Positions 10,829 through 29,516 of a DNA stretch of 33,111 nt are shown in pieces. Both the position numbers and the translations under genes were made by a program. Source of the stretch: Candidatus Cloacimonadota bacterium (lineage in GTDB: Bacteria > Cloacimonadota > Cloacimonadia > Cloacimonadales > TCS61); NCBI GenBank assembly GCA_021735645.1, contig JAIPGP010000041.1:1-33111 (forward strand). Direction: 5' to 3'. Below the pieces are notes generated by a model. That model searched no databases. It was not told the origin of the DNA and was given only the letters and a program-made list of their open reading frames with translations. Position 1 is the first letter of the stretch. Each line of letters starts with the position of its first letter.

Positions 10829-13800
10829 ATGAGAAAGAGTATTTTAATAGCTCTGATGCTGTCGATAGGAGTCTTATTGACTGGCAGTATGGGAGCTATA
10901 CCAGTATCTGGAGAAGTTACGGGGGTAACCTTAACAGAAGAAAGTGACAACAATCTGGGATTAAGTGTAAACATTAATGAGGTTGATTTTTTTGATGTGA
11001 GCACTCAGGCGGGTGAATTTGTAAATTTATCGATAGCGGGATTTACGAGTACAAATGAAATTGGTGCACCGCGATTACCAAAAGTACGCAGAATATTCAG
11101 TGTTCCAGTTGGAGCGGAAGTGAGTGTACGGGTAAATGATTTTCAAATTGAGCAGTATGAACTGGGAGCTTATGGAATAAGCAATCAGGTGATGCCGTCA
11201 CAGCCACCATTATCTAAGAGTGAAACTGCAGCTGATGTGGAATTTATTTATGATCCGGCGATTTACAGTCAGAATAGTTTTACTGAAATGGAACTGGCAA
11301 ATGTGGAGGAACTGGGTATTTTACGCGGGTTACGTTTATTTGTGGTGAATATTAATCCAGTGCGTTATAATCCGGTTACTAATGAGATACAGGTATATAC
11401 AGCGATAGATCTGAATATTGAATATACTGGTGGAGATGCACTGGCTACGGCAGAGCTTCGCAGCCGAACCTGGTCACCGGTTTTTGAACCTATCTATGCT
11501 CAGAAGGTGATAAATTATCACAGATATGAGATGCGTGATGATCTAACCCGCTATCCGATCAAATATGTGATCATTTCCGACCGGATGTTTGAAGATCAGT
11601 TAGCAGATTTTATTGACTGGAAGACAACACAGGGTTATGATGTAATAGTGAGCTATACTGATGAGATAGGCAGCACAACGAGTTTGATCCACAGTTATAT
11701 CGAGGGCTTATGGGATGAAGCATCTCCTGAAGACCCGGCACCCAGTTTTATACTATTTGTGGGAGACACTCAGCAGATACCGGCTTATAACGGCAGTGAG
11801 GGCAGTCATGTAACGGATTTGAATTATGTCCGTCTGGAAGGAACAGATTTCATGCCGGAAATCTATTATGGCAGATTCAGTGCCCAGAATACGGCTCAAT
11901 TACAGCCACAGATAGATAAGACCCTGGAATATGAGATGTATGCGATGGAAGATCCGAGCTATTTAAATGAAGTAGTAATGATAGCCGGTATGGATGCCAG
12001 TCATGGCAGCACCTGGGGCAATGGACAGATCAATTATGGGACAACTTATTATTTTAATGAAGCTCATGGTTTAACATCCCATACATATCTGTATCCGGAT
12101 TCTGGTAATAATGCAGCCAATATAGTTCAGGACGTGTCTGATGGAGTATCATATATCAATTATACAGCCCATGGCAGTCAGGATTCCTGGGCAGACCCAT
12201 CCTTTACGATCAGTAATGTAAATAGTCTTGAAAATGAAGGGGAGTATTGTTTTGCAGTAGCTAACTGCTGTTTGACTAATAAGTTTGAAGTAGGGACATG
12301 TTTTGGTGAAGCGTGGCTGCGGGCAGAGAATAAAGGTGCTATAGGCTACGTGGGTGGAACAAATTCCACTTACTGGGATCAGGATTACTGGTGGGGCGTT
12401 GGAGCTGGAGCAGTAGTGACTAATCCTACATATGAAACTACTGGTGCGGGAGCTTATGACGGGATGTGGCATGATCATGATGAAGAATTTCTGCAATGGT
12501 ACACAGTAGGTTTTGCCTATATTATGGCAGGTAATCTGGCAGTTGTAGAAGGCGGCAGCATGATGAATTATTACTGGGAGATATATGCTTTAATGGGAGA
12601 CCCATCCTTAAGTGTATTTTTCAGTGAAGCAGAAGAAAACGAAGCAGAATATCCGGAAGAATTACTTCTGGGATTAAATAGTATGGAAATAACCTGCGAG
12701 CCTTATTCTTATGTGGCATTAACTTATGATGGAGAGATCATGGGCGTGGGGCTTGTGGATGACAGCGGAGTTCTCAATCTGGAATATTTACCTTTTGATG
12801 AACCATGTATGGCAAATCTTACTATAACCGGACAGAATCTAATGCCAATAATCACACAGGTGCAGGTGATCCCTAATGAAGGTGCTTATCTGATACTTGA
12901 TGCTTATGAAGTGATGAGCGGAGGTGATGATGTGATCGATGGAGGTGAAAGTACCTCGATTTCACTGGATGTAGAGAATCTGGGAATGGAAGATGCAGAA
13001 GAGACAGTGATGACGATTGGCTGTGCAGATGAATATATAACTCTGGAAGAGACAAGTCTGAATCTGGGACTTATTCCGGCTCAGACACTGATGGAATTTA
13101 CCGAGTTGATCAATTTTGAAGTTTCGGAAGATATACCCTTTGGTCATCCGATCAGAATGGACCTGGAATTTACTACTGAGAGTGGGACCTGGTTGGAAGA
13201 GCTAAATCTTAGTGCTTATGCACCTCCGGGACTTTGGATAGACCCGGGGATGATCGAGGCTGAAGTTGACAGCACAGAAACATATACAACAACATTTGCG
13301 ATTTCAAATTATCTGGATGATCCCGTGGCTTACAGTATCAGAACGGAGTCAGATGATAGAGGTAGAGACCTGACAAACAGTTATATGGAATGCGATCATC
13401 ATCATTTTGAACCTGGCGAGCAATATCAATGGATAGTGACAGTGTATAATTTAACTCCCGACGGTGAGTGGATATCTGATGTAAGCGTCAGTCTGCCTGA
13501 AGGCGTATTTGTAGAAAACACTGGTCTGATGATAGGTGGCAGTGGAGGAGCGATGGAGCCGGATGTAACCAGTGGTGATGGGATCACAATCACCTGGCAT
13601 GGTGCAACTCCTTCCGGATACGGATATCTGCATGAAGGCCAATCTGCTGAGGCAGTGATTGTGCTTACAGTGGATGAAGCATATACGGGATACATTGTAT
13701 GTGATTATGAGTTAACCGGAGATAATTATGGAGCAGCACCGCATGTGATCAATGGCAGCTTTGAATTATCATATCCATTAAGCTGGATAAGTCTGGATAA

Positions 13801-14257
13801 TACAGAAGGTGAATTAGAATATGGACAGACAGACTTTATAGAAGTGAGCCTGAATCCCGAGGGAATGGAAGCCGGGACTTATGAATGTGAGATAGTGATA
13901 ACAGACAGCAGATTAGAAACCAGGATTCCTGTAACGATGGAGATCATGGGCACAAATGAAAATGATGGTGGAATCACAGGGTTAACTGCGTTATATGGTA
14001 ATTATCCTAATCCGTTTAATCCGGAAACAACCATATCTTATTCATTGGAACAGGCAGGAGCAGTAGTTCTGGAGATATTTAATATTAAGGGACAAAAGGT
14101 AGCCACACTTGTGAACAGTCAGCAGTCAACAGGAGCTCATCAAATAACATGGCAGGGAGAGGATGCAATGGGCACTGCTGTAGGAAGTGGAATATATCTA
14201 TATAGACTTCAAACCGGTGATCAGAGTTTTGCTGGTAAGATGATGCTGATGAAATAA
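10829..14257 (+). CDS. Secreted gingipain-like cysteine protease (peptidase C25) with type IX-like sorting domain
   Basis: 1142 residues. A signal peptide (basic MRKS, then a hydrophobic core to about 25) is followed by an inhibitory pro-region to about 230 and the C25 catalytic domain at about 235-600. H448 (TAHGS) and C481 (NCCLTNKF) are the likely catalytic pair; they lie 33 residues apart, the same spacing as His211 and Cys244 of mature RgpB. CFGEAWLRA follows, as in gingipains. Ig-like modules fill about 610-1040. The last ~90 residues (GNYPNPFNP, then EIFNIKGQKVATL, then GIYLYRLQTG) match the FlgD-like type A sorting domain used by type IX secretion. It is therefore probably exported and attached at the cell surface to degrade proteins. 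AAAGGAG precedes the ATG. Confidence 0.93.
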   Translation: MRKSILIALMLSIGVLLTGSMGAIPVSGEVTGVTLTEESDNNLGLSVNINEVDFFDVSTQAGEFVNLSIAGFTSTNEIGAPRLPKVRRIFSVPVGAEVSVRVNDFQIEQYELGAYGISNQVMPSQPPLSKSETAADVEFIYDPAIYSQNSFTEMELANVEELGILRGLRLFVVNINPVRYNPVTNEIQVYTAIDLNIEYTGGDALATAELRSRTWSPVFEPIYAQKVINYHRYEMRDDLTRYPIKYVIISDRMFEDQLADFIDWKTTQGYDVIVSYTDEIGSTTSLIHSYIEGLWDEASPEDPAPSFILFVGDTQQIPAYNGSEGSHVTDLNYVRLEGTDFMPEIYYGRFSAQNTAQLQPQIDKTLEYEMYAMEDPSYLNEVVMIAGMDASHGSTWGNGQINYGTTYYFNEAHGLTSHTYLYPDSGNNAANIVQDVSDGVSYINYTAHGSQDSWADPSFTISNVNSLENEGEYCFAVANCCLTNKFEVGTCFGEAWLRAENKGAIGYVGGTNSTYWDQDYWWGVGAGAVVTNPTYETTGAGAYDGMWHDHDEEFLQWYTVGFAYIMAGNLAVVEGGSMMNYYWEIYALMGDPSLSVFFSEAEENEAEYPEELLLGLNSMEITCEPYSYVALTYDGEIMGVGLVDDSGVLNLEYLPFDEPCMANLTITGQNLMPIITQVQVIPNEGAYLILDAYEVMSGGDDVIDGGESTSISLDVENLGMEDAEETVMTIGCADEYITLEETSLNLGLIPAQTLMEFTELINFEVSEDIPFGHPIRMDLEFTTESGTWLEELNLSAYAPPGLWIDPGMIEAEVDSTETYTTTFAISNYLDDPVAYSIRTESDDRGRDLTNSYMECDHHHFEPGEQYQWIVTVYNLTPDGEWISDVSVSLPEGVFVENTGLMIGGSGGAMEPDVTSGDGITITWHGATPSGYGYLHEGQSAEAVIVLTVDEAYTGYIVCDYELTGDNYGAAPHVINGSFELSYPLSWISLDNTEGELEYGQTDFIEVSLNPEGMEAGTYECEIVITDSRLETRIPVTMEIMGTNENDGGITGLTALYGNYPNPFNPETTISYSLEQAGAVVLEIFNIKGQKVATLVNSQQSTGAHQITWQGEDAMGTAVGSGIYLYRLQTGDQSFAGKMMLMK

Positions 14258-14269
14258 ATTTGAATTATT

Positions 14270-14300
14270 GAGCCGGTACAAAAGTGCCGGCTCTTATTTT
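14270..14300 (+). terminator. Hairpin between the two protease genes
   Basis: GAGCCGGTAC, loop AAAA, then GTGCCGGCTC (10-bp stem with one T-G wobble), followed by TTATTTT. The T-tract is interrupted and the ribosome binding site of the next gene begins right after it, so it may be a leaky terminator that lowers expression of the second protease. Confidence 0.75.
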
Positions 14301-14313
14301 ATGGAGGGTTGCA

Positions 14314-17300
14314 ATGAGAAGGCAAATAGTTCTATTAGTTTTAATATTTTTAAGTATTTTACTCTATGGCAGGGATTTCAACTGGGATAATAATGAATAC
14401 CGTGATGGTCTGCAAATATTAGAATCAGATGTAAACGGAGTAGTTCTCACCTGGTCAACATCATCTTTTAGTTTGAATGATATAGAGATCAATGGGATAA
14501 TAACTCAGGAATTAGTATTTGGAGACGAATTTTTACCCAATGATGCCGGCTGTCCGGATCTGCCAGGTATCAGCAGAATGATAGCAGTGCCGGAAGGAGC
14601 CGAGGTAAAATTAGACTATGAATATTTCAATGAAGAGATCATCAGAGGAGTAGACATTGCTCCTGCCCCGGTAATTCCGAAGGAAACAGAAGATGGACTG
14701 GAATATTTCCGGGGCAAGGCATATCAGCAGGATGAGCTTTATCCATCCGCAGTAAGTCAGATATCAGAAATTGATGAGATAAGGGGAGTGGATTATGTAA
14801 TGTTAGGTATTTCTCCTTTCCGTTATAATCCAATGCAGAAGGAATTGCACGTATATCGTGATATCAGGATAAGCCTTAGTTTTCAAGGTGGAAATGGCAG
14901 ATTTGGTGAAGATCGTCTGCGCAGTCGCTGGTGGGACCCTGTACTCAAGGGTATATTGTTAAACTGGGATAATCTGCCGGAACTCGATTATACACAAACC
15001 CAGTCACAACAGAGAACTCCTGATTATGAATATTTGATTATTAGTCCAACCGGAGAACCATTTGTTACCTGGGCAGACTCGATCAGAATATTCAGAACCC
15101 AACAGGGTATCAGAACCGGTATCGTTACACTGGCTGAGACTGGCAGCTCAAATGCTCAAATTGAAAATTATATAAATACTGCCTATAATACCTGGGATAT
15201 TCCACCGGTAGCGGTTTTATTTCTGGGAGATTATGGGACTAATGCTACAAACTCAGTGAGTAGCCCTACTTATAATAATTATTGCATTTCAGATAATATT
15301 TTTGCAGATATTACGGGTAATAATCTGCCGGATATCTCCACAGCGCGGATAACAGCCCGTACGGATGCTGAACTCGAATTGATGATCCATAAATTTATGG
15401 ACTATGAACGTAATCCGCCTACAAATGCAGGTTTTTATCAGAATCCTGTTATCGCTGGAGGCTGGCAGACCGAACGCTGGTTCATACTTGCTACTGAGGT
15501 TGTGAGAGGCTTCTGGAGCAATGTACTGGATAAAAGCCCGGTGCGCGAGTATGCTATTTATAGCGGAACTCCGGGAACAGTGTGGTCAACAGCCACTAAC
15601 ACCTCAACGGTAGTGAATTATTTTGGTAGTAGTGGTTTAGGCTATCTGGGTGCTTCTCCGCAAATTATTCCCAGTTGGAATGCCAATGCTGCCAGTATAA
15701 ATAATGATATTAATAATGGCTGCTTTATACTACAGCATCGGGATCATGGAGGCGAAACCGGGTGGGGAGAACCGGATTATGGTAATAGTGATCTGGGAGG
15801 ACTCAATAATGACGACCTTTCATTCATTTTCTCAACTAACTGTTTGACGGGTAAATTCAATTGGAGCAGTGAGTGCTTCACAGAAGCTTTACATCGCCAT
15901 GCTCGGGGAGCTTTGGGACTGATCGCAGCCACGGAAGTATCCTATTCATTCGTTAATGACACCTATATCTGGGGAACATATGATTATATGTGGCCTAACT
16001 TTGATCCGGGTCATGGGGCAGACGGTCAGAATTCGATTTTGCCCTGTTTTGCTAACAGCAGCGGGAAATGGTATCTGCAGGCAAGTAACTGGCCCTATAA
16101 TGGCGGGGATAAAGAGGTAACATATTATCTATTCCATCATCATGGAGATGCCTTCTCTACAGTATATACCTCGATGCCTGAGGAAATAGCTATCACTTAC
16201 CCTGAGGTGCTGCTGAGCGGAATGACCAGTGTGAACGTGACAGCAGAGGCAGGAACTTTTATCTGCTTATCAGTAGGAGATGAGATATTGGCTACAGCTG
16301 AGGGTAATGGCAGTCCGCAAAGTATCGTGATAGAATCTCAAACCCCATTGACTCTGGTACATTTGACAGCGACAAAGCAGGATTGCTATCGGGAAGAGGC
16401 AGATATATTGGTAATTCCTCCGGAAGGTGCTTATGCAGTTGTGAATAATGTGGAGATCAGCACAATTGATGATGATGTGATAGAGTATGCCGAAACTGTG
16501 GTCATGAGTGCATCAGTAGAGAATTTTGGCAGTGAGACAGCAGAGAATCTACTGATAACCATAAGCTGTAATGATCAATATATCACAATTACAGATAATA
16601 CAGAAACTGGAGTGCAGGTAGCAGCAGGTGAAACTCTGGTGCTGGCTGATGCTTTCAGTTTCACAGTTGCCCAGGATATACCAGATGAGCACAATTTCTA
16701 TTTTACTGCAATAGTCGCCAGTGATCAGGGCAGTTGGGAGAGTGCCATAAACCTGACCGGTTATGCACCTGTGATTGAGCTGAATGGTTTGAGCATTACC
16801 GGGGATACTAATTCCAATGGCAGACTTGATCCGGGTGAGACTGCGAACTTAAATATTGAGATACTGAATAGCGGTGGGGCAGACCTTTATAACATTGTAC
16901 CCCAGCTAAATGAGACCGACCAGTATTGTACAATAATCCAGAATGGCAGCAGCCTTGCGGAGATAGAAACAGGTGATAGTGGAGTATTCACTTATGAATT
17001 GGAAGTAGAAAATTCTGCTCCGGTAGGTCATGTGATCAGCTTTGATTTTACCTGTGAAGCGGATATGGATTATGGCATTCAAACATCATTTGCTCTTACT
17101 GTGGGATTGTGCCTGGAAGATTTTGAGAGTGCAGGATTCAGCCAGTATGACTGGATAATGAGCGGAACTGGTGGCTGGCAGATGAGTGGGGGCAGTTATG
17201 AAGGATCATATTGTGCCCAGTCAGCAAATATCAGCGATAGCCAGTCAGCAGGTATGGAAGTGGAAGTGAATGTATTGAGCCCGGATGACATCAGTTTCTA

Positions 17301-18741
17301 TTACAAAGTTTCATCCGAAAGTGGCTGGGATTATCTGAAATTTTATATTGATGGCACCCAGATAAATGACTGGAGCGGGACTATAGACTGGACGGAATAT
17401 TCCACACCGGTGAGTGTGGGAACGCATATTTTTAAGTGGGAATATTCTAAAGACAGTTCTGTGAGCAGTGGCAGTGACTGTGCCTGGATAGATTATATTG
17501 TATTCCCTCCGATCAATATTCCTCAACCAGCAGAGATGATACTTGATAATGAGCAATTTGCCTTTAATGTGCTGCCTCAAGGTAGTGATAGTGCAGAATT
17601 GCAGATAACTAATATCGGAGGAAGAGACCTGGAATGGTCTATAAGTAAAAATTATGCGATATCACGAGCCAGCGGTGGACCCGATAATTATGGCTATCAG
17701 TGGCTGGACAGTGATGAACCTGATGGACCAGACTTTAACTGGATAGACATTTCAGGTACGGGAACTCAGGTTGTATTCACCCATAACGATCAGGCAGAGG
17801 GTCCATATCCTATTGGCTTCGAATTTAATTTCTATGGTCAGCAATACAGTGAATTTATCATTAATGCCAATGGCTGGCTGGGTTTTGGTTCAGATAACAG
17901 TGGCTGGAGTAATAGTTCATTACCGGATAATGACGGACCTCGTCCGGCGATAATGGGATTTTGGGATGACCTGTATCCTGCCATTGGCGGCAGCGGTGAA
18001 GGAGAAGTATATTATCAGAGCTTCAATAATTATCTGGTGGTCATGTTTGACAATGTGCAGCACTATCCTGGTAATTATAATGGAAACTACACCTTTGAGA
18101 TGATAATTTATGCCAGTGGAGAAATACTGCTGCAATATGACGAAGTGAGTGGCGATACTGATAGCGGAACTGTCGGTATTCAGAATAATAATGCCAGCGA
18201 TGCTCTGCAGATAGTGTATAATGATAATTATGTGTCTGACAACCTGGCTGTTCGCATTCTGCAGGTAGTGGACTGGCTGGAATTGAGCCAGACTATTGGC
18301 TCAGTGCCTATGGGTAGTAATACGAGCATCACGCTCACAGTTGATGCAGAAGATCTGGAAATAGGTGATTATCTCTGCAATCTGGTATTAAACAGTAATG
18401 ATCCGCAGCAGGGCGAACTGGAAATCCCGGTAAACCTTATGGTTGGAGGTGAAATCGCTTATGGTGATATTGATGATAATGGTGTAGTAGATGCTTTTGA
18501 TGCTGCCATTGCATTACAGTATTTTGTGGATATTGATCCGCCGGCAGCACCATTACCCTGGGCAATATGGCGTATATGGAGGGCAGATGTTGATGGAAAT
18601 GGAGCTGTGGAAGCCTATGATGCCTCTTTGATCCAGCAATATTCGGTAGGTCTTATCTCGGTATTCCCTGTGGAAGTTCCCAGAACAAATATTTCGCGGA
18701 AGAAGACTCAGGATATAAAAAGTAAAAAAAGTTTAGATTAA
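14314..18741 (+). CDS. Secreted gingipain-like protease (C25) ending in a dockerin-like Ca-binding pair
   Basis: 1475 residues from the ATG at 14314, which has GGAGGG in front. An in-frame GTG at 14284 is possible, but it lies within the upstream hairpin. A signal peptide (MRRQIVLLVLIFLSILLYG) and pro-region precede a C25 domain with likely catalytic H478 (RDHGGE) and C510 (TNCLTGKF). CFTEALHRHARGALG follows, as in the first protease. After Ig-like modules comes a jelly-roll-like segment (about 930-1070). The end (about 1382-1450) has two calcium-loop repeats, DIDDNGVVDAFDAA and DVDGNGAVEAYDAS, typical of dockerin type I. Unlike its neighbour it lacks the YPNPFNP sorting domain and ends in a basic Lys/Arg-rich tail. 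It may dock to a cohesin-like partner or use a different exit route. Confidence 0.92.
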   Translation: MRRQIVLLVLIFLSILLYGRDFNWDNNEYRDGLQILESDVNGVVLTWSTSSFSLNDIEINGIITQELVFGDEFLPNDAGCPDLPGISRMIAVPEGAEVKLDYEYFNEEIIRGVDIAPAPVIPKETEDGLEYFRGKAYQQDELYPSAVSQISEIDEIRGVDYVMLGISPFRYNPMQKELHVYRDIRISLSFQGGNGRFGEDRLRSRWWDPVLKGILLNWDNLPELDYTQTQSQQRTPDYEYLIISPTGEPFVTWADSIRIFRTQQGIRTGIVTLAETGSSNAQIENYINTAYNTWDIPPVAVLFLGDYGTNATNSVSSPTYNNYCISDNIFADITGNNLPDISTARITARTDAELELMIHKFMDYERNPPTNAGFYQNPVIAGGWQTERWFILATEVVRGFWSNVLDKSPVREYAIYSGTPGTVWSTATNTSTVVNYFGSSGLGYLGASPQIIPSWNANAASINNDINNGCFILQHRDHGGETGWGEPDYGNSDLGGLNNDDLSFIFSTNCLTGKFNWSSECFTEALHRHARGALGLIAATEVSYSFVNDTYIWGTYDYMWPNFDPGHGADGQNSILPCFANSSGKWYLQASNWPYNGGDKEVTYYLFHHHGDAFSTVYTSMPEEIAITYPEVLLSGMTSVNVTAEAGTFICLSVGDEILATAEGNGSPQSIVIESQTPLTLVHLTATKQDCYREEADILVIPPEGAYAVVNNVEISTIDDDVIEYAETVVMSASVENFGSETAENLLITISCNDQYITITDNTETGVQVAAGETLVLADAFSFTVAQDIPDEHNFYFTAIVASDQGSWESAINLTGYAPVIELNGLSITGDTNSNGRLDPGETANLNIEILNSGGADLYNIVPQLNETDQYCTIIQNGSSLAEIETGDSGVFTYELEVENSAPVGHVISFDFTCEADMDYGIQTSFALTVGLCLEDFESAGFSQYDWIMSGTGGWQMSGGSYEGSYCAQSANISDSQSAGMEVEVNVLSPDDISFYYKVSSESGWDYLKFYIDGTQINDWSGTIDWTEYSTPVSVGTHIFKWEYSKDSSVSSGSDCAWIDYIVFPPINIPQPAEMILDNEQFAFNVLPQGSDSAELQITNIGGRDLEWSISKNYAISRASGGPDNYGYQWLDSDEPDGPDFNWIDISGTGTQVVFTHNDQAEGPYPIGFEFNFYGQQYSEFIINANGWLGFGSDNSGWSNSSLPDNDGPRPAIMGFWDDLYPAIGGSGEGEVYYQSFNNYLVVMFDNVQHYPGNYNGNYTFEMIIYASGEILLQYDEVSGDTDSGTVGIQNNNASDALQIVYNDNYVSDNLAVRILQVVDWLELSQTIGSVPMGSNTSITLTVDAEDLEIGDYLCNLVLNSNDPQQGELEIPVNLMVGGEIAYGDIDDNGVVDAFDAAIALQYFVDIDPPAAPLPWAIWRIWRADVDGNGAVEAYDASLIQQYSVGLISVFPVEVPRTNISRKKTQDIKSKKSLD

Positions 18742-26882: not shown

Positions 26883-26918
26883 ACGCGAACTGGAATGTAA
26901 TGTGAAGATATTTACCAC
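26883..26918 (+). repeat. Direct repeat C, left copy
   Basis: Starts ACGCGAACTGGAATG and ends GATATTTACCAC. A near-identical copy with a two-base deletion lies at 28229-28263 in the same orientation, on the other side of the 159-residue gene. Confidence 0.85.
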
Positions 26919-27098: not shown

Positions 27099-27116
27099 CA
27101 GACCATCCCTGGTCTG
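27099..27116. repeat. Perfect hairpin CAGACCA-TCCC-TGGTCTG
   Basis: 7-bp stem with a 4-base loop at the start of the first 63-bp repeat unit. The right arm recurs in the other two units but the left arm does not. No T-run follows on either strand. Confidence 0.8.
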
Positions 27117-27246
27117 ATTACATTACATTCCATTTTCCATTTTCAATTTTCAATTTTACATTACTATCTCCCTGGTCTGATTACATTACATTGAATTTTA
27201 CATTTTCAATTTTCAATTTTCAATTACTATCTCCCTGGTCTGATTA
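27107..27246 (+). repeat. 63-bp tandem repeat, two full units and a partial third
   Basis: CCCTGGTCTGATTA starts at 27107, 27170 and 27233, exactly 63 bases apart. After each marker comes TTACATT-type and CATTTTCAATTTT-type sequence that differs slightly between units. Because 63 is divisible by three, one frame stays open across all units. Confidence 0.95.
27193..27225 (+). repeat. Word block A, left copy (inverted partner at 28093-28125)
   Basis: A run of CATTTTCAATTTTCAATTTT type. Its reverse complement occurs at 28093-28125 with about two differences over 33 bases. Confidence 0.75.
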
Positions 27247-27253
27247 CATTCCC

Positions 27254-27280
27254 ATTCACTGTTCACTAATCACTGTTCAC
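27254..27280 (+). repeat. Word block B, left copy (inverted partner at 28144-28170)
   Basis: ATTCACTGTTCACTAATC and following bases. The reverse complement of 28144-28170 matches it at 25 of 27 positions. Confidence 0.85.
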
Positions 27281-27310: not shown

Positions 27311-27331
27311 GGGGGCTTTCGCCCCCATTTT
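27311..27331 (-). terminator. Strong terminator of the 159-residue gene
   Basis: On the minus strand GGGGGC, GAAA tetraloop, GCCCCC, then TTTTT. The stem starts 5 bases after the stop codon. On the plus strand it is followed by ATTTTTT, so it can work in both directions. Confidence 0.93.
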
Positions 27332-27811
27332 TTAAACAGTCTCTATAGAGCTGTCCAAGGTTTCAAGGTCAAGACCGCAAGCCGGCATACCGGCAGCGGT
27401 GATCAGATTTCCTACATTTGGCTCTGCGGTGCCCAGCAGGTCGCCAGCCTCACCACCGAAATTATCCACAGTAAGTGTGGAAATATCAAAGGCAGAGAGC
27501 TTAGCAACTGCAAAGCAGGCTTTGAGGAAGATATTGAGCTTGTTGTAAGGGATTTGAGTGCGTCCATCAAGCTGGGTCTCGTTCCAGGCTTGCGTATAGG
27601 TGATGATGTCATTAATGAATCCTTCGGAAGCATCCTTCCAGGTATCGATAACAGCGGTTGTTTTGGAGGCGAATGCGGCTTCGCCTGTCGGATTATCGGG
27701 TACAGTGTATTGACATAGAAAAGTGACATCAAGGTCATGCCAGCCATAAGCCACTTTTTCTCCATCACGACCAGTTACGGTGCGATACGGGGTTACTAAT
27801 GTTGCTTTCAT
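27332..27811 (-). CDS. Unrecognised 159-residue protein with strong expression signals
   Basis: I do not recognise this protein. It is soluble-looking, without signal peptide or membrane helix, acidic overall, with a Thr/Asp/Gly-rich start (MKATLVTPYRTVTGRDGEKV), a helical-looking middle (AVIDTWKDASEGFINDIITY; KLNIFLKACFAVAKL) and an acidic end (LDLETLDSSIETV). Three Cys are present (C33, C114 and C145). Its expression signals are unusually complete: TTGACA-17-TATATT promoter, a leader of about 77 bases, a full AAGGAGG site and a perfect GC terminator. This predicts a plentiful single-gene transcript. It stands alone in repeat-rich DNA, bracketed by related word blocks on both sides. A structural or surface-associated role is one guess; there is no direct evidence. 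Confidence 0.82.
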   Translation of the reverse strand: MKATLVTPYRTVTGRDGEKVAYGWHDLDVTFLCQYTVPDNPTGEAAFASKTTAVIDTWKDASEGFINDIITYTQAWNETQLDGRTQIPYNKLNIFLKACFAVAKLSAFDISTLTVDNFGGEAGDLLGTAEPNVGNLITAAGMPACGLDLETLDSSIETV

Positions 27812-27814
27812 AAT

Positions 27815-27828
27815 GAAAGCCTCCTTTC
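27815..27828 (-). promoter_or_regulatory. Ribosome binding site held in a small hairpin
   Basis: On the minus strand GAAAG-GAGG-CTTTC: the Shine-Dalgarno core AAGGAGG forms part of the left stem and the whole loop of a 5-bp hairpin, 3 bases before the ATG. The stem is weak, so it may only tune translation, for example with temperature or a bound factor. Confidence 0.5.
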
Positions 27829-27894
27829 GAATTAATGTTTAGGTTTGATCAGAACCAAACATCATTCATTTAATTTAAGTAAGCTTACGGGGAT

Positions 27895-27923
27895 AATATA
27901 AAACGATAGTATTATTATGTCAA
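27895..27923 (-). promoter_or_regulatory. Near-consensus sigma-70-type promoter
   Basis: On the minus strand TTGACA (27918-27923), exactly 17 bases, TATATT (27895-27900). The -35 matches 6 of 6 and the -10 matches 5 of 6. The start point should lie near 27888, giving a leader of about 77 bases to the 159-residue gene. Confidence 0.8.
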
Positions 27924-28092
27924 GTAAAATATTAATACAAGTGTATATTTTTTTAGCATGAAACTGGTGATTTTTGCTGTGAATGGCTTATTATTGTTGT
28001 AAATGGTTTAATTACAGGTATTAAGCATGATATTTGTCAAAGATTTACAGTGAACCCACAGGGAAGCCACAGGGGGGGGCAGGCGGAGCCTG

Positions 28093-28228: not shown

Positions 28229-28263
28229 AGCGCGAACTAATGTAATGTGAAGATATTTACCAC
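28229..28263 (+). repeat. Direct repeat C, right copy
   Basis: Matches 26883-26918 apart from a two-base deletion (GAACTAATG against GAACTGGAATG) and one or two changes near the start. Confidence 0.85.
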
Positions 28264-28324
28264 CATAGTAAAAAACACGGATCGACATGGTCGGCAGAAG
28301 CACTGAAAAGGCTATATAATGGGC

Positions 28325-28351
28325 TTTATGGACATTATGGACATTATAGAC
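28325..28351. repeat. 9-mer array, three units
   Basis: TTTATGGAC, ATTATGGAC, ATTATAGAC. It is a short relative of the ten-unit array at 10387-10476 and directly precedes composite repeat copy 1. Confidence 0.85.
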
Positions 28352-28362
28352 TGATAATTAAA

Positions 28363-28925: not shown

Positions 28926-28980
28926 GGCTGGGTGAATTATTGAATTATCGGAGTGGAAATCGGAAACTATTTTGCGAAAT
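28926..28980 (+). repeat. Composite repeat, copy 2
   Basis: AGGCTGGGTGAATTATTG, then AATTATCGGAGTGGAAATC and GGAAACTATTTTGCGAAAT. About 55 bases, highly similar to 29462-29516. Confidence 0.85.
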
Positions 28981-29235: not shown

Positions 29236-29414
29236 AAAGATAAGAGAGAATATGTTTTGAGAAAATAGTTTGTGATTTGGGGGGAGATAATTCAATAATT
29301 CAGATTTTTCTGGAGGATAAATAATGGGTTGAAGAATAGAACGCTGACGCAACTGATTGGACGGATTGGGCGGATTTACGCGGATAATGGGTTTATTTAT
29401 GGGGGATTTTGGTC

Positions 29415-29450
29415 TGGATGGACATTATGGACTTAATGGACTTTATGGAC
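29415..29450. repeat. 9-mer array, four units
   Basis: TGGATGGAC, ATTATGGAC, TTAATGGAC, TTTATGGAC. It lies 11 bases before composite repeat copy 3, as the array at 28325 lies before copy 1. Confidence 0.85.
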
Positions 29451-29461
29451 GATAATCTGGT

Positions 29462-29516
29462 GGCTGGGTGAATTATTGAATTATCGGGGTGGAAAACGGT
29501 AACTATTTTATGAAAT
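29462..29516 (+). repeat. Composite repeat, copy 3
   Basis: GGCTGGGTGAATTATTG, AATTATCGGGGTGGAAAAC, GGTAACTATTTTATGAAAT. Same order of parts as copy 2. Confidence 0.85.

What the first reader, a model, noticed from the sequence alone, without database searches (positions are those of the whole stretch)
27332..27923. Orphan protein with near-perfect expression signals
Consensus promoter (TTGACA-17-TATATT), AAGGAGG site, GAAA-loop terminator: these are signs of a very abundant product, yet the protein is unrecognised and has no operon partners. Abundant unknown single-gene products are often structural, surface or stress proteins.
Basis: partly seen in the sequence, partly recalled or inferred. 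Interest (0 to 1): 0.6.

Follow-up and report, generated by a model that had tools for sequence, protein, structure and literature searches.

The report
Scattered unknown gene family of Cloacimonadota
The gene really carries strong start and stop signals, but it is not a lone orphan: it is one of several scattered, selectively maintained copies of an undescribed small-protein family that recurs across a phylum of uncultured anaerobic bacteria, with its own shared promoter element and no known function.

Summary
The signals are real: TTGACA-17-TATATT, AAAGGAGG, a 159-codon ORF and a GAAA-loop terminator. The product matches nothing in Pfam, PHROGs, NCBIfam or PDB. It is not, however, an isolated orphan. 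The same genome holds three near-identical copies and one 60% copy; a profile finds the family in 64 of 124 Cloacimonadota genomes. Copies are monocistronic, lie among unrelated genes even between close relatives, and are under strong purifying selection.

In the window's clade the copies share a private element: TTGACA plus the palindrome GTAAGCTTAC starting at the predicted first transcribed base. That pattern occurs 6 times in 59 related genomes, always before this gene type. Six of seven such leaders carry the partner for a 5' mRNA hairpin; the window copy has lost it, has a shortened leader, and has replaced an otherwise Arg/Lys position by Cys. Codon usage shows no sign of very high expression.

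A weak AlphaFold model gives a beta-hairpin plus helical bundle with no structural match. Best reading: a small cytoplasmic, probably self-assembling protein, expressed from regulated, scattered single-gene units. Abundance and function remain undemonstrated. A faint N-terminal resemblance to DUF6266 is unproven.

The parts
27332..27811 (-). ORF, 159 aa (17.1 kDa, pI 4.3), member of an undescribed Cloacimonadota family; no hydrophobic segment
27918..27923 (-). -35 box TTGACA, present in 7 of 7 close copies that have upstream sequence
27895..27900 (-). -10 box TATATT, spacer 17
27879..27888 (.). palindrome GTAAGCTTAC at the predicted +1 to +10 (start site inferred from -10 spacing); exact in 6 of 7 close copies, one mismatch in the seventh
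27812..27888 (-). 77-nt leader (others 101-111 nt) with a central hairpin; the 5' hairpin partner GTTTAT of the other copies is missing
27820..27827 (-). Shine-Dalgarno AAAGGAGG, 8 nt before ATG
27311..27326 (-). intrinsic terminator GGGGGC-GAAA-GCCCCC + T run
28056..28071 (-). copy of genome-wide repeat TGTGGCTTCCCTGTGG (31 sites with at most 1 mismatch), upstream of the promoter in all three near-identical copies
26894..26918 (+). 25-nt perfect direct repeat flanking the unit (partner 28239-28263)
28239..28263 (+). 25-nt perfect direct repeat flanking the unit (partner 26894-26918)

Best explanation
The gene is one copy of a Cloacimonadota-wide multicopy family of about 150-aa cytoplasmic proteins (N-terminal beta-hairpin plus helical bundle). 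It is encoded as scattered single-gene units that bring their own promoter, structured leader and terminator. In this clade all window-type copies are switched together by one signal: a strong sigma-70 promoter with a 10-bp palindrome laid over the transcription start, probably the operator of an unidentified regulator, followed by a 5' hairpin that should stabilise the mRNA. The product most likely acts by self-assembly as a building block, with two diverged types (A and B) kept side by side, rather than as an enzyme. SHOWN: family, copy number, purifying selection, scattered positions, private promoter element. INFERRED: start site, operator function, mRNA stabilisation, cytoplasmic location. 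GUESSED: self-assembly and abundance. Confidence: about 0.9 for family and anatomy, 0.6 for shared regulation, 0.3 for the structural role; the figure below is for the whole.
For: Four short copies in the genome (100, 97, 93, 60%) plus 5 longer ORFs of 353-379 codons and one fragment; 64 of 124 genomes and 21 of 50 genera of the phylum match. Constraint: window vs C37 copy dS 0.21, dN 0.02; residues 54-159 dN 0.004, dS 0.18. Promoter pattern TTGACA-N24-34-GTAAGCTTAC: 6 matches in 59 genomes, 6 of 6 upstream of window-type copies, 1 match to the reversed control; GTAAGCTTAC occurs 4 times in 3.77 Mb, 3 of them here, the fourth inside a coding sequence. 5' hairpin GUAAGC/GUUUAU in 5 of 7 single folds; six of its seven pairs kept in 5 of 5 leaders in the consensus fold. 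No conserved partner gene: 14 family-bearing stretches compared. A and B types both occur in G000, G001 and G015; two family genes in tandem in L054, L072, L079 and L082. No transmembrane or signal-like segment in 59 members. Model: hairpin 19-34, helices 41-58, 63-80, 93-105.
Against: No expression data. Codon usage is average. Most members elsewhere lack near-consensus promoters (7 of 58 reach 11 of 12) and the palindrome. In the window copy the leader may hide the ribosome site and Cys replaces the Arg/Lys at position 33, so this copy may be decaying. The palindrome evidence is divided: the window copy keeps it without the hairpin partner (favours operator), the C131 copy breaks the palindrome but keeps hairpin pairs (favours RNA). 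Only one of five models reached pLDDT 62, from 7 sequences, and nothing in PDB supports an assembling fold. An enzyme is not excluded.
Confidence: 0.4

Rival explanations
1. Mobile or selfish single-gene cassettes: the unit is spread by recombination between the genome-wide intergenic repeats that flank it, and the protein serves its own persistence (defence, exclusion or similar) rather than the cell's architecture.
For: Copies with 81-97% identity sit among unrelated genes; at the rseP locus the relatives G001 and G015 have other genes and no family member; copy number up to 22 matches per genome; direct, inverted and genome-wide repeats flank the unit; one relative lies beside a Mu-like transposase and repressor (labels from my reading).
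Against: No transposase, integrase or attachment site in the unit; the repeats are present throughout the genome, so flanking by them may mean nothing; both types persist across genera, as expected of a vertically kept function.
Confidence: 0.25
2. Phage-derived virion-type protein domesticated by Cloacimonadota, related to DUF6266-like proteins.
For: The A1 profile scores two DUF6266-like proteins of phage record OP209177.1 at 10.3 and 9.8 bits, above all 265 non-family ORFs, aligned in register over the SGK...R-Y-x-x-P motif; that 8-kb record carries three such ORFs (two with a PF19781 match, the third by my reading) beside a REP_ORF2-G2P initiator.
Against: 1 of 1000 shuffles of each protein scores as high; profiles A4 and A5 do not detect them; hhalign probability 2%; no convincing family member in the phage or plasmid collections and one in IMG/VR.
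Confidence: 0.12
3. Small regulatory or adaptor protein (for example a stress-induced inhibitor), needed in bursts, with the palindrome as its autoregulatory operator.
For: Small, acidic in this clade (pI 4.3), monocistronic, private operator-like palindrome.
Against: Acidity is not conserved (median pI 6.8 over the short members); no known DNA-binding domain in Pfam scans.
Confidence: 0.15

Closest known systems
DUF6266 (PF19781)
   Same: N-terminal pattern S/G-K-x-G-x-x-V ... R-x-Y-x-x-P-x-N that the A1 profile aligns in register
   Different: No member of A1 matches PF19781; no hit in G000, G043, G050; the rest of this protein is predicted helical, whereas I read the DUF6266-like C-terminus as beta-rich (my reading, untested)
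Lineage-restricted multicopy gene families of unknown function in uncultured phyla (general kind, recalled)
   Same: Restricted distribution, many paralogues, no annotation
   Different: Copies carry a private, nearly invariant promoter-plus-palindrome module and share no neighbours
mRNA 5' stabilising hairpins of the ompA type (recalled)
   Same: A hairpin opening at the predicted first base of the transcript
   Different: Sequence unrelated; the start site is inferred; the window copy lacks it

Membership tests
DUF6266 | Pfam score at or above the curated cut-off (23.4 bits) | tested here: not met
   0 of 23 members match PF19781; 0 of 3 genomes (the control rang nowhere, so weak)
DUF6266 | N-terminal SGK...R-Y-x-x-P hairpin motif | tested here: inconclusive
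   10.3 and 9.8 bits, above 265 ORF decoys, but 1 of 1000 shuffles as good; hhalign 2%
Acidic DNA-mimic anti-restriction proteins (Ocr/ArdA kind, recalled) | Strong acidity conserved in the family | tested here: not met
   window pI 4.26 but median 6.8 over the short members
Secreted surface or S-layer protein | Signal peptide or hydrophobic N-terminal segment | tested here: not met
   highest 19-residue Kyte-Doolittle mean 1.59 over 59 members, window 1.43; no dedicated signal predictor was available
Insertion sequence or MITE | Precise terminal inverted repeats with target duplication, or a transposase | tested here: inconclusive
   inverted arms 27243-27306/28118-28181 are 77% complementary and AT-rich; no transposase-like ORF within the unit
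Highly expressed gene | Codon adaptation like ribosomal proteins | tested here: not met
   CAI 0.71; 20 r-proteins 0.72-0.79; background 0.65-0.77
Highly expressed gene | Transcript or protein abundance | not testable with these tools
   no expression data held

The most novel reading that the evidence does not exclude
Cloacimonadota carry a phylum-specific set of self-contained single-gene cassettes (promoter, start-site palindrome, stabilising leader, ORF, terminator) that relocate between dispersed intergenic repeats and encode two co-maintained subunit types of an unknown cytoplasmic assembly, all copies switched by one dedicated regulator.
Probability: 0.15. Interest if true: 0.7.

Novelty: new variant of a known kind. 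Interest (0 to 1): 0.45.

Why it matters
About half of the sampled genomes of an uncultured phylum important in anaerobic digesters and anoxic lakes keep copies of a protein family for which I found no description. The private promoter module gives a direct handle on a regulator, and the repeated relocation of nearly identical units is a tractable case of how single genes spread without a recognisable mobile element.

Tried and rejected
Known families: Pfam, PHROGs, NCBIfam and PDB, single protein and profiles, gave only scattered sub-threshold hits. Phage or plasmid origin: no convincing hit; one IMG/VR contig, L086, places a relative beside a Mu-like transposase. DNA mimic: rejected, acidity not conserved. 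Pseudogenes: the one-stop rows looked like decayed copies, but the one I compared with its locus (G043, 972110) is a profile running over the normal terminal stop, so I make no pseudogene claim. A regulon beyond the family: none found among relatives; the same pattern in IMG/VR gave 88 stretches, of which the 32 matches with spacing 29 are mostly one phage-borne sequence unrelated to this promoter, and one with the same hexamers (L162) precedes an unrelated phage ORF. Literature: searches for Stygibacter, CLOAM0/Cloacimonas/metaproteom, DUF6266, L8635, Bacteriophage N55, Cloacimon/metatranscriptom and others, and multicopy/orphan gene/Cloacimonadota showed nothing on this family in their listings; of PMC8542988 and PMC13082233 I saw only found passages. 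First AlphaFold run with 6 sequences was useless (pLDDT 43).

Rows dropped: one search left out L020, L025, L027 and L031 (partial or broken); one search left out L027 and the long forms; A1 used 23 of the 32 places fetched.

Full report
OBSERVATION. The listed elements are present at the stated coordinates on the minus strand: TTGACA 27923-27918, 17-nt spacer, TATATT 27900-27895, AAAGGAGG 27820-27827, ATG at 27811, stop at 27332, GC stem with GAAA loop at 27326-27311. Eleven of twelve promoter matches is rare here: 2 of 72 sampled gene upstreams. The protein has no match in Pfam, PHROGs, NCBIfam or PDB.

NOT AN ORPHAN. The same genome (G000, 3.77 Mb) holds copies at C37 (97%), C59 (93%) and C151 (60% over residues 29-159). 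A protein search rang in 12 of 59 related genomes, and a profile of 23 members (A1) in 64 of 124 Cloacimonadota genomes, 21 of 50 genera, with up to 22 matches per genome. In G000 the profile also finds five longer ORFs (353-379 codons) and one fragment. The genus is Candidatus Stygibacter if the G002 contig of 10803 bases is JAVCCT010000324.1, which has the same length and match. The single-contig genome G043 has 7 matches; its length recalls Candidatus Cloacimonas acidaminovorans (recalled, untested).

SELECTION. Between the window copy and the C37 and C59 copies dS is 0.21 and 0.25 and dN 0.02 and 0.04; in residues 54-159 dN is 0.004 in both pairs. The copies are therefore maintained proteins, with a faster evolving N-terminus. 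The window copy has Cys at position 33, where 22 of the 23 aligned members have Arg (19) or Lys (3).

PRIVATE REGULATORY MODULE. GTAAGCTTAC occurs at 4 places in G000, about what composition predicts (4.4), but three of the four sit at nearly the same offset behind the -35 box of the three near-identical copies, and the fourth is inside a coding sequence. The pattern TTGACA-N24-34-GTAAGCTTAC occurs 6 times in 59 genomes, in 3 of them, and all 6 precede window-type copies (gap 29 in five, 30 in one); the reversed control rang once. The seventh close copy with upstream sequence (C131 of G015) has GTAAGCTCAC. Since most comparisons of G015 with G000 copies are at or near saturation at synonymous sites, I read this as selection, not recent descent. 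From -10 spacing the palindrome begins at +1 (inferred). In single folds GUAAGC pairs with a GUUUAU just downstream in 5 of 7 leaders, and the consensus fold of five leaders keeps six of those seven pairs in all five. Folding z-scores of six leaders run from -0.5 to -2.5, so the rest of the leader is only moderately structured. The window leader is 77 nt against 101-111, lacks the hairpin partner, and in its predicted fold the ribosome site is largely paired. Operator and 5' hairpin are both possible roles; the evidence is split.

EXPRESSION LEVEL. Codon adaptation to 20 ribosomal proteins is 0.71 for the gene, inside the background of 32 ORFs (0.65-0.77) and below the r-proteins (0.72-0.79); 1303 of 2000 random synonymous versions score as high. 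Bias is weak in this genome, so this neither supports nor excludes abundance. Across the family strong promoters are not general: 7 of 58 reach 11 of 12 (one of the 58 had no usable upstream), while 58 of 58 have at least 5 of 7 Shine-Dalgarno matches and a simple finder sees a terminator in 19 of 58.

POSITIONS. Comparing all neighbours of 14 stretches (the window included) and 3 rseP regions, I find no shared position. Exceptions to tell: L092 and L095 share a two-gene pair (44% and 58%), 0.9 kb from the gene in one and about 7.5 kb in the other; L091 and L097 share a repeat-containing protein; other cross-hits are kinases, response regulators and shared C-terminal domains. At rseP, relatives G001 and G015 have four other genes (by my reading a radical-SAM-like, an FAD-like, a response regulator and a kinase gene) and no family member; the G002 contig ends too soon to tell. 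The window unit lies between a 25-nt perfect direct repeat, AT-rich inverted arms, and a 16-mer present at 31 sites of the genome. Whether that flanking means mobility is open.

PROTEIN. No transmembrane-like segment in 59 members. Invariant in A1: Met1, Gly14, Asp68, Tyr72. Foldseek on PDB found nothing at E below 9, VIA-align nothing at Z 2, BFVD nothing at E below 2. A tree of 54 members separates types that recur side by side in the same genomes (A and B in G000, G001, G015; two types in tandem in genomes of family f10), which suggests that unlike copies are kept together.

RELATIVES. The nearest described family I could suggest is DUF6266. The A1 profile aligns to two of them over the N-terminal motif at 10 bits, better than 265 ORFs but matched by 1 of 1000 shuffles each; other family profiles and hhalign do not support it. 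I do not file it there.

VERDICT. A real, constrained, multicopy family with its own promoter module; function unknown but most plausibly an assembling cytoplasmic protein. The 'abundant orphan' idea is half right.

Noticed in passing
L025 (1-160) and L031 (genome G015, contigs C83 and C94): A window-type copy in genome G015 is broken by what looks like a short (about 160 bp) element with about 19-bp perfect terminal inverted repeats and a TA duplication; the two contigs end in the same repeat.
   Followed up: partly
L090 (OP209177.1): An 8-kb record filed as Caudoviricetes has a REP_ORF2-G2P replication initiator and three DUF6266-like ORFs, more like a small rolling-circle phage.
   Followed up: partly
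L005, L006, L007, L029, L032: Proteins of 343-367 aa carry the family module at the C-terminus and a degenerate copy of its N-terminal motif near the start, with a stretch between that looks beta-rich (my reading).
   Followed up: partly
window 27106-27265: Tandem 63-bp units TCCCTGGTCTGATTACATTACATT..., part of AT-rich intergenic repeats seen at other places of the genome.
   Followed up: no
window 28313-28352, 29394-29460, 28926-28980 and 29462-29516: Nine-base repeats of the ATGGACATT type and a 55-bp direct repeat (91%) in the gap upstream of the gene.
   Followed up: no
window 10829-18741: Two adjacent very large ORFs (1142 and 1485 aa) that read like gingipain-type peptidases, the first ending in a T9SS-like sorting domain and the second in a dockerin-like stretch (my reading, no family scan run).
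   Followed up: no
L072 8722-14001 (G043): A tandem pair of family genes lies just upstream of genes that read like a type III CRISPR-Cas locus (my reading).
   Followed up: no
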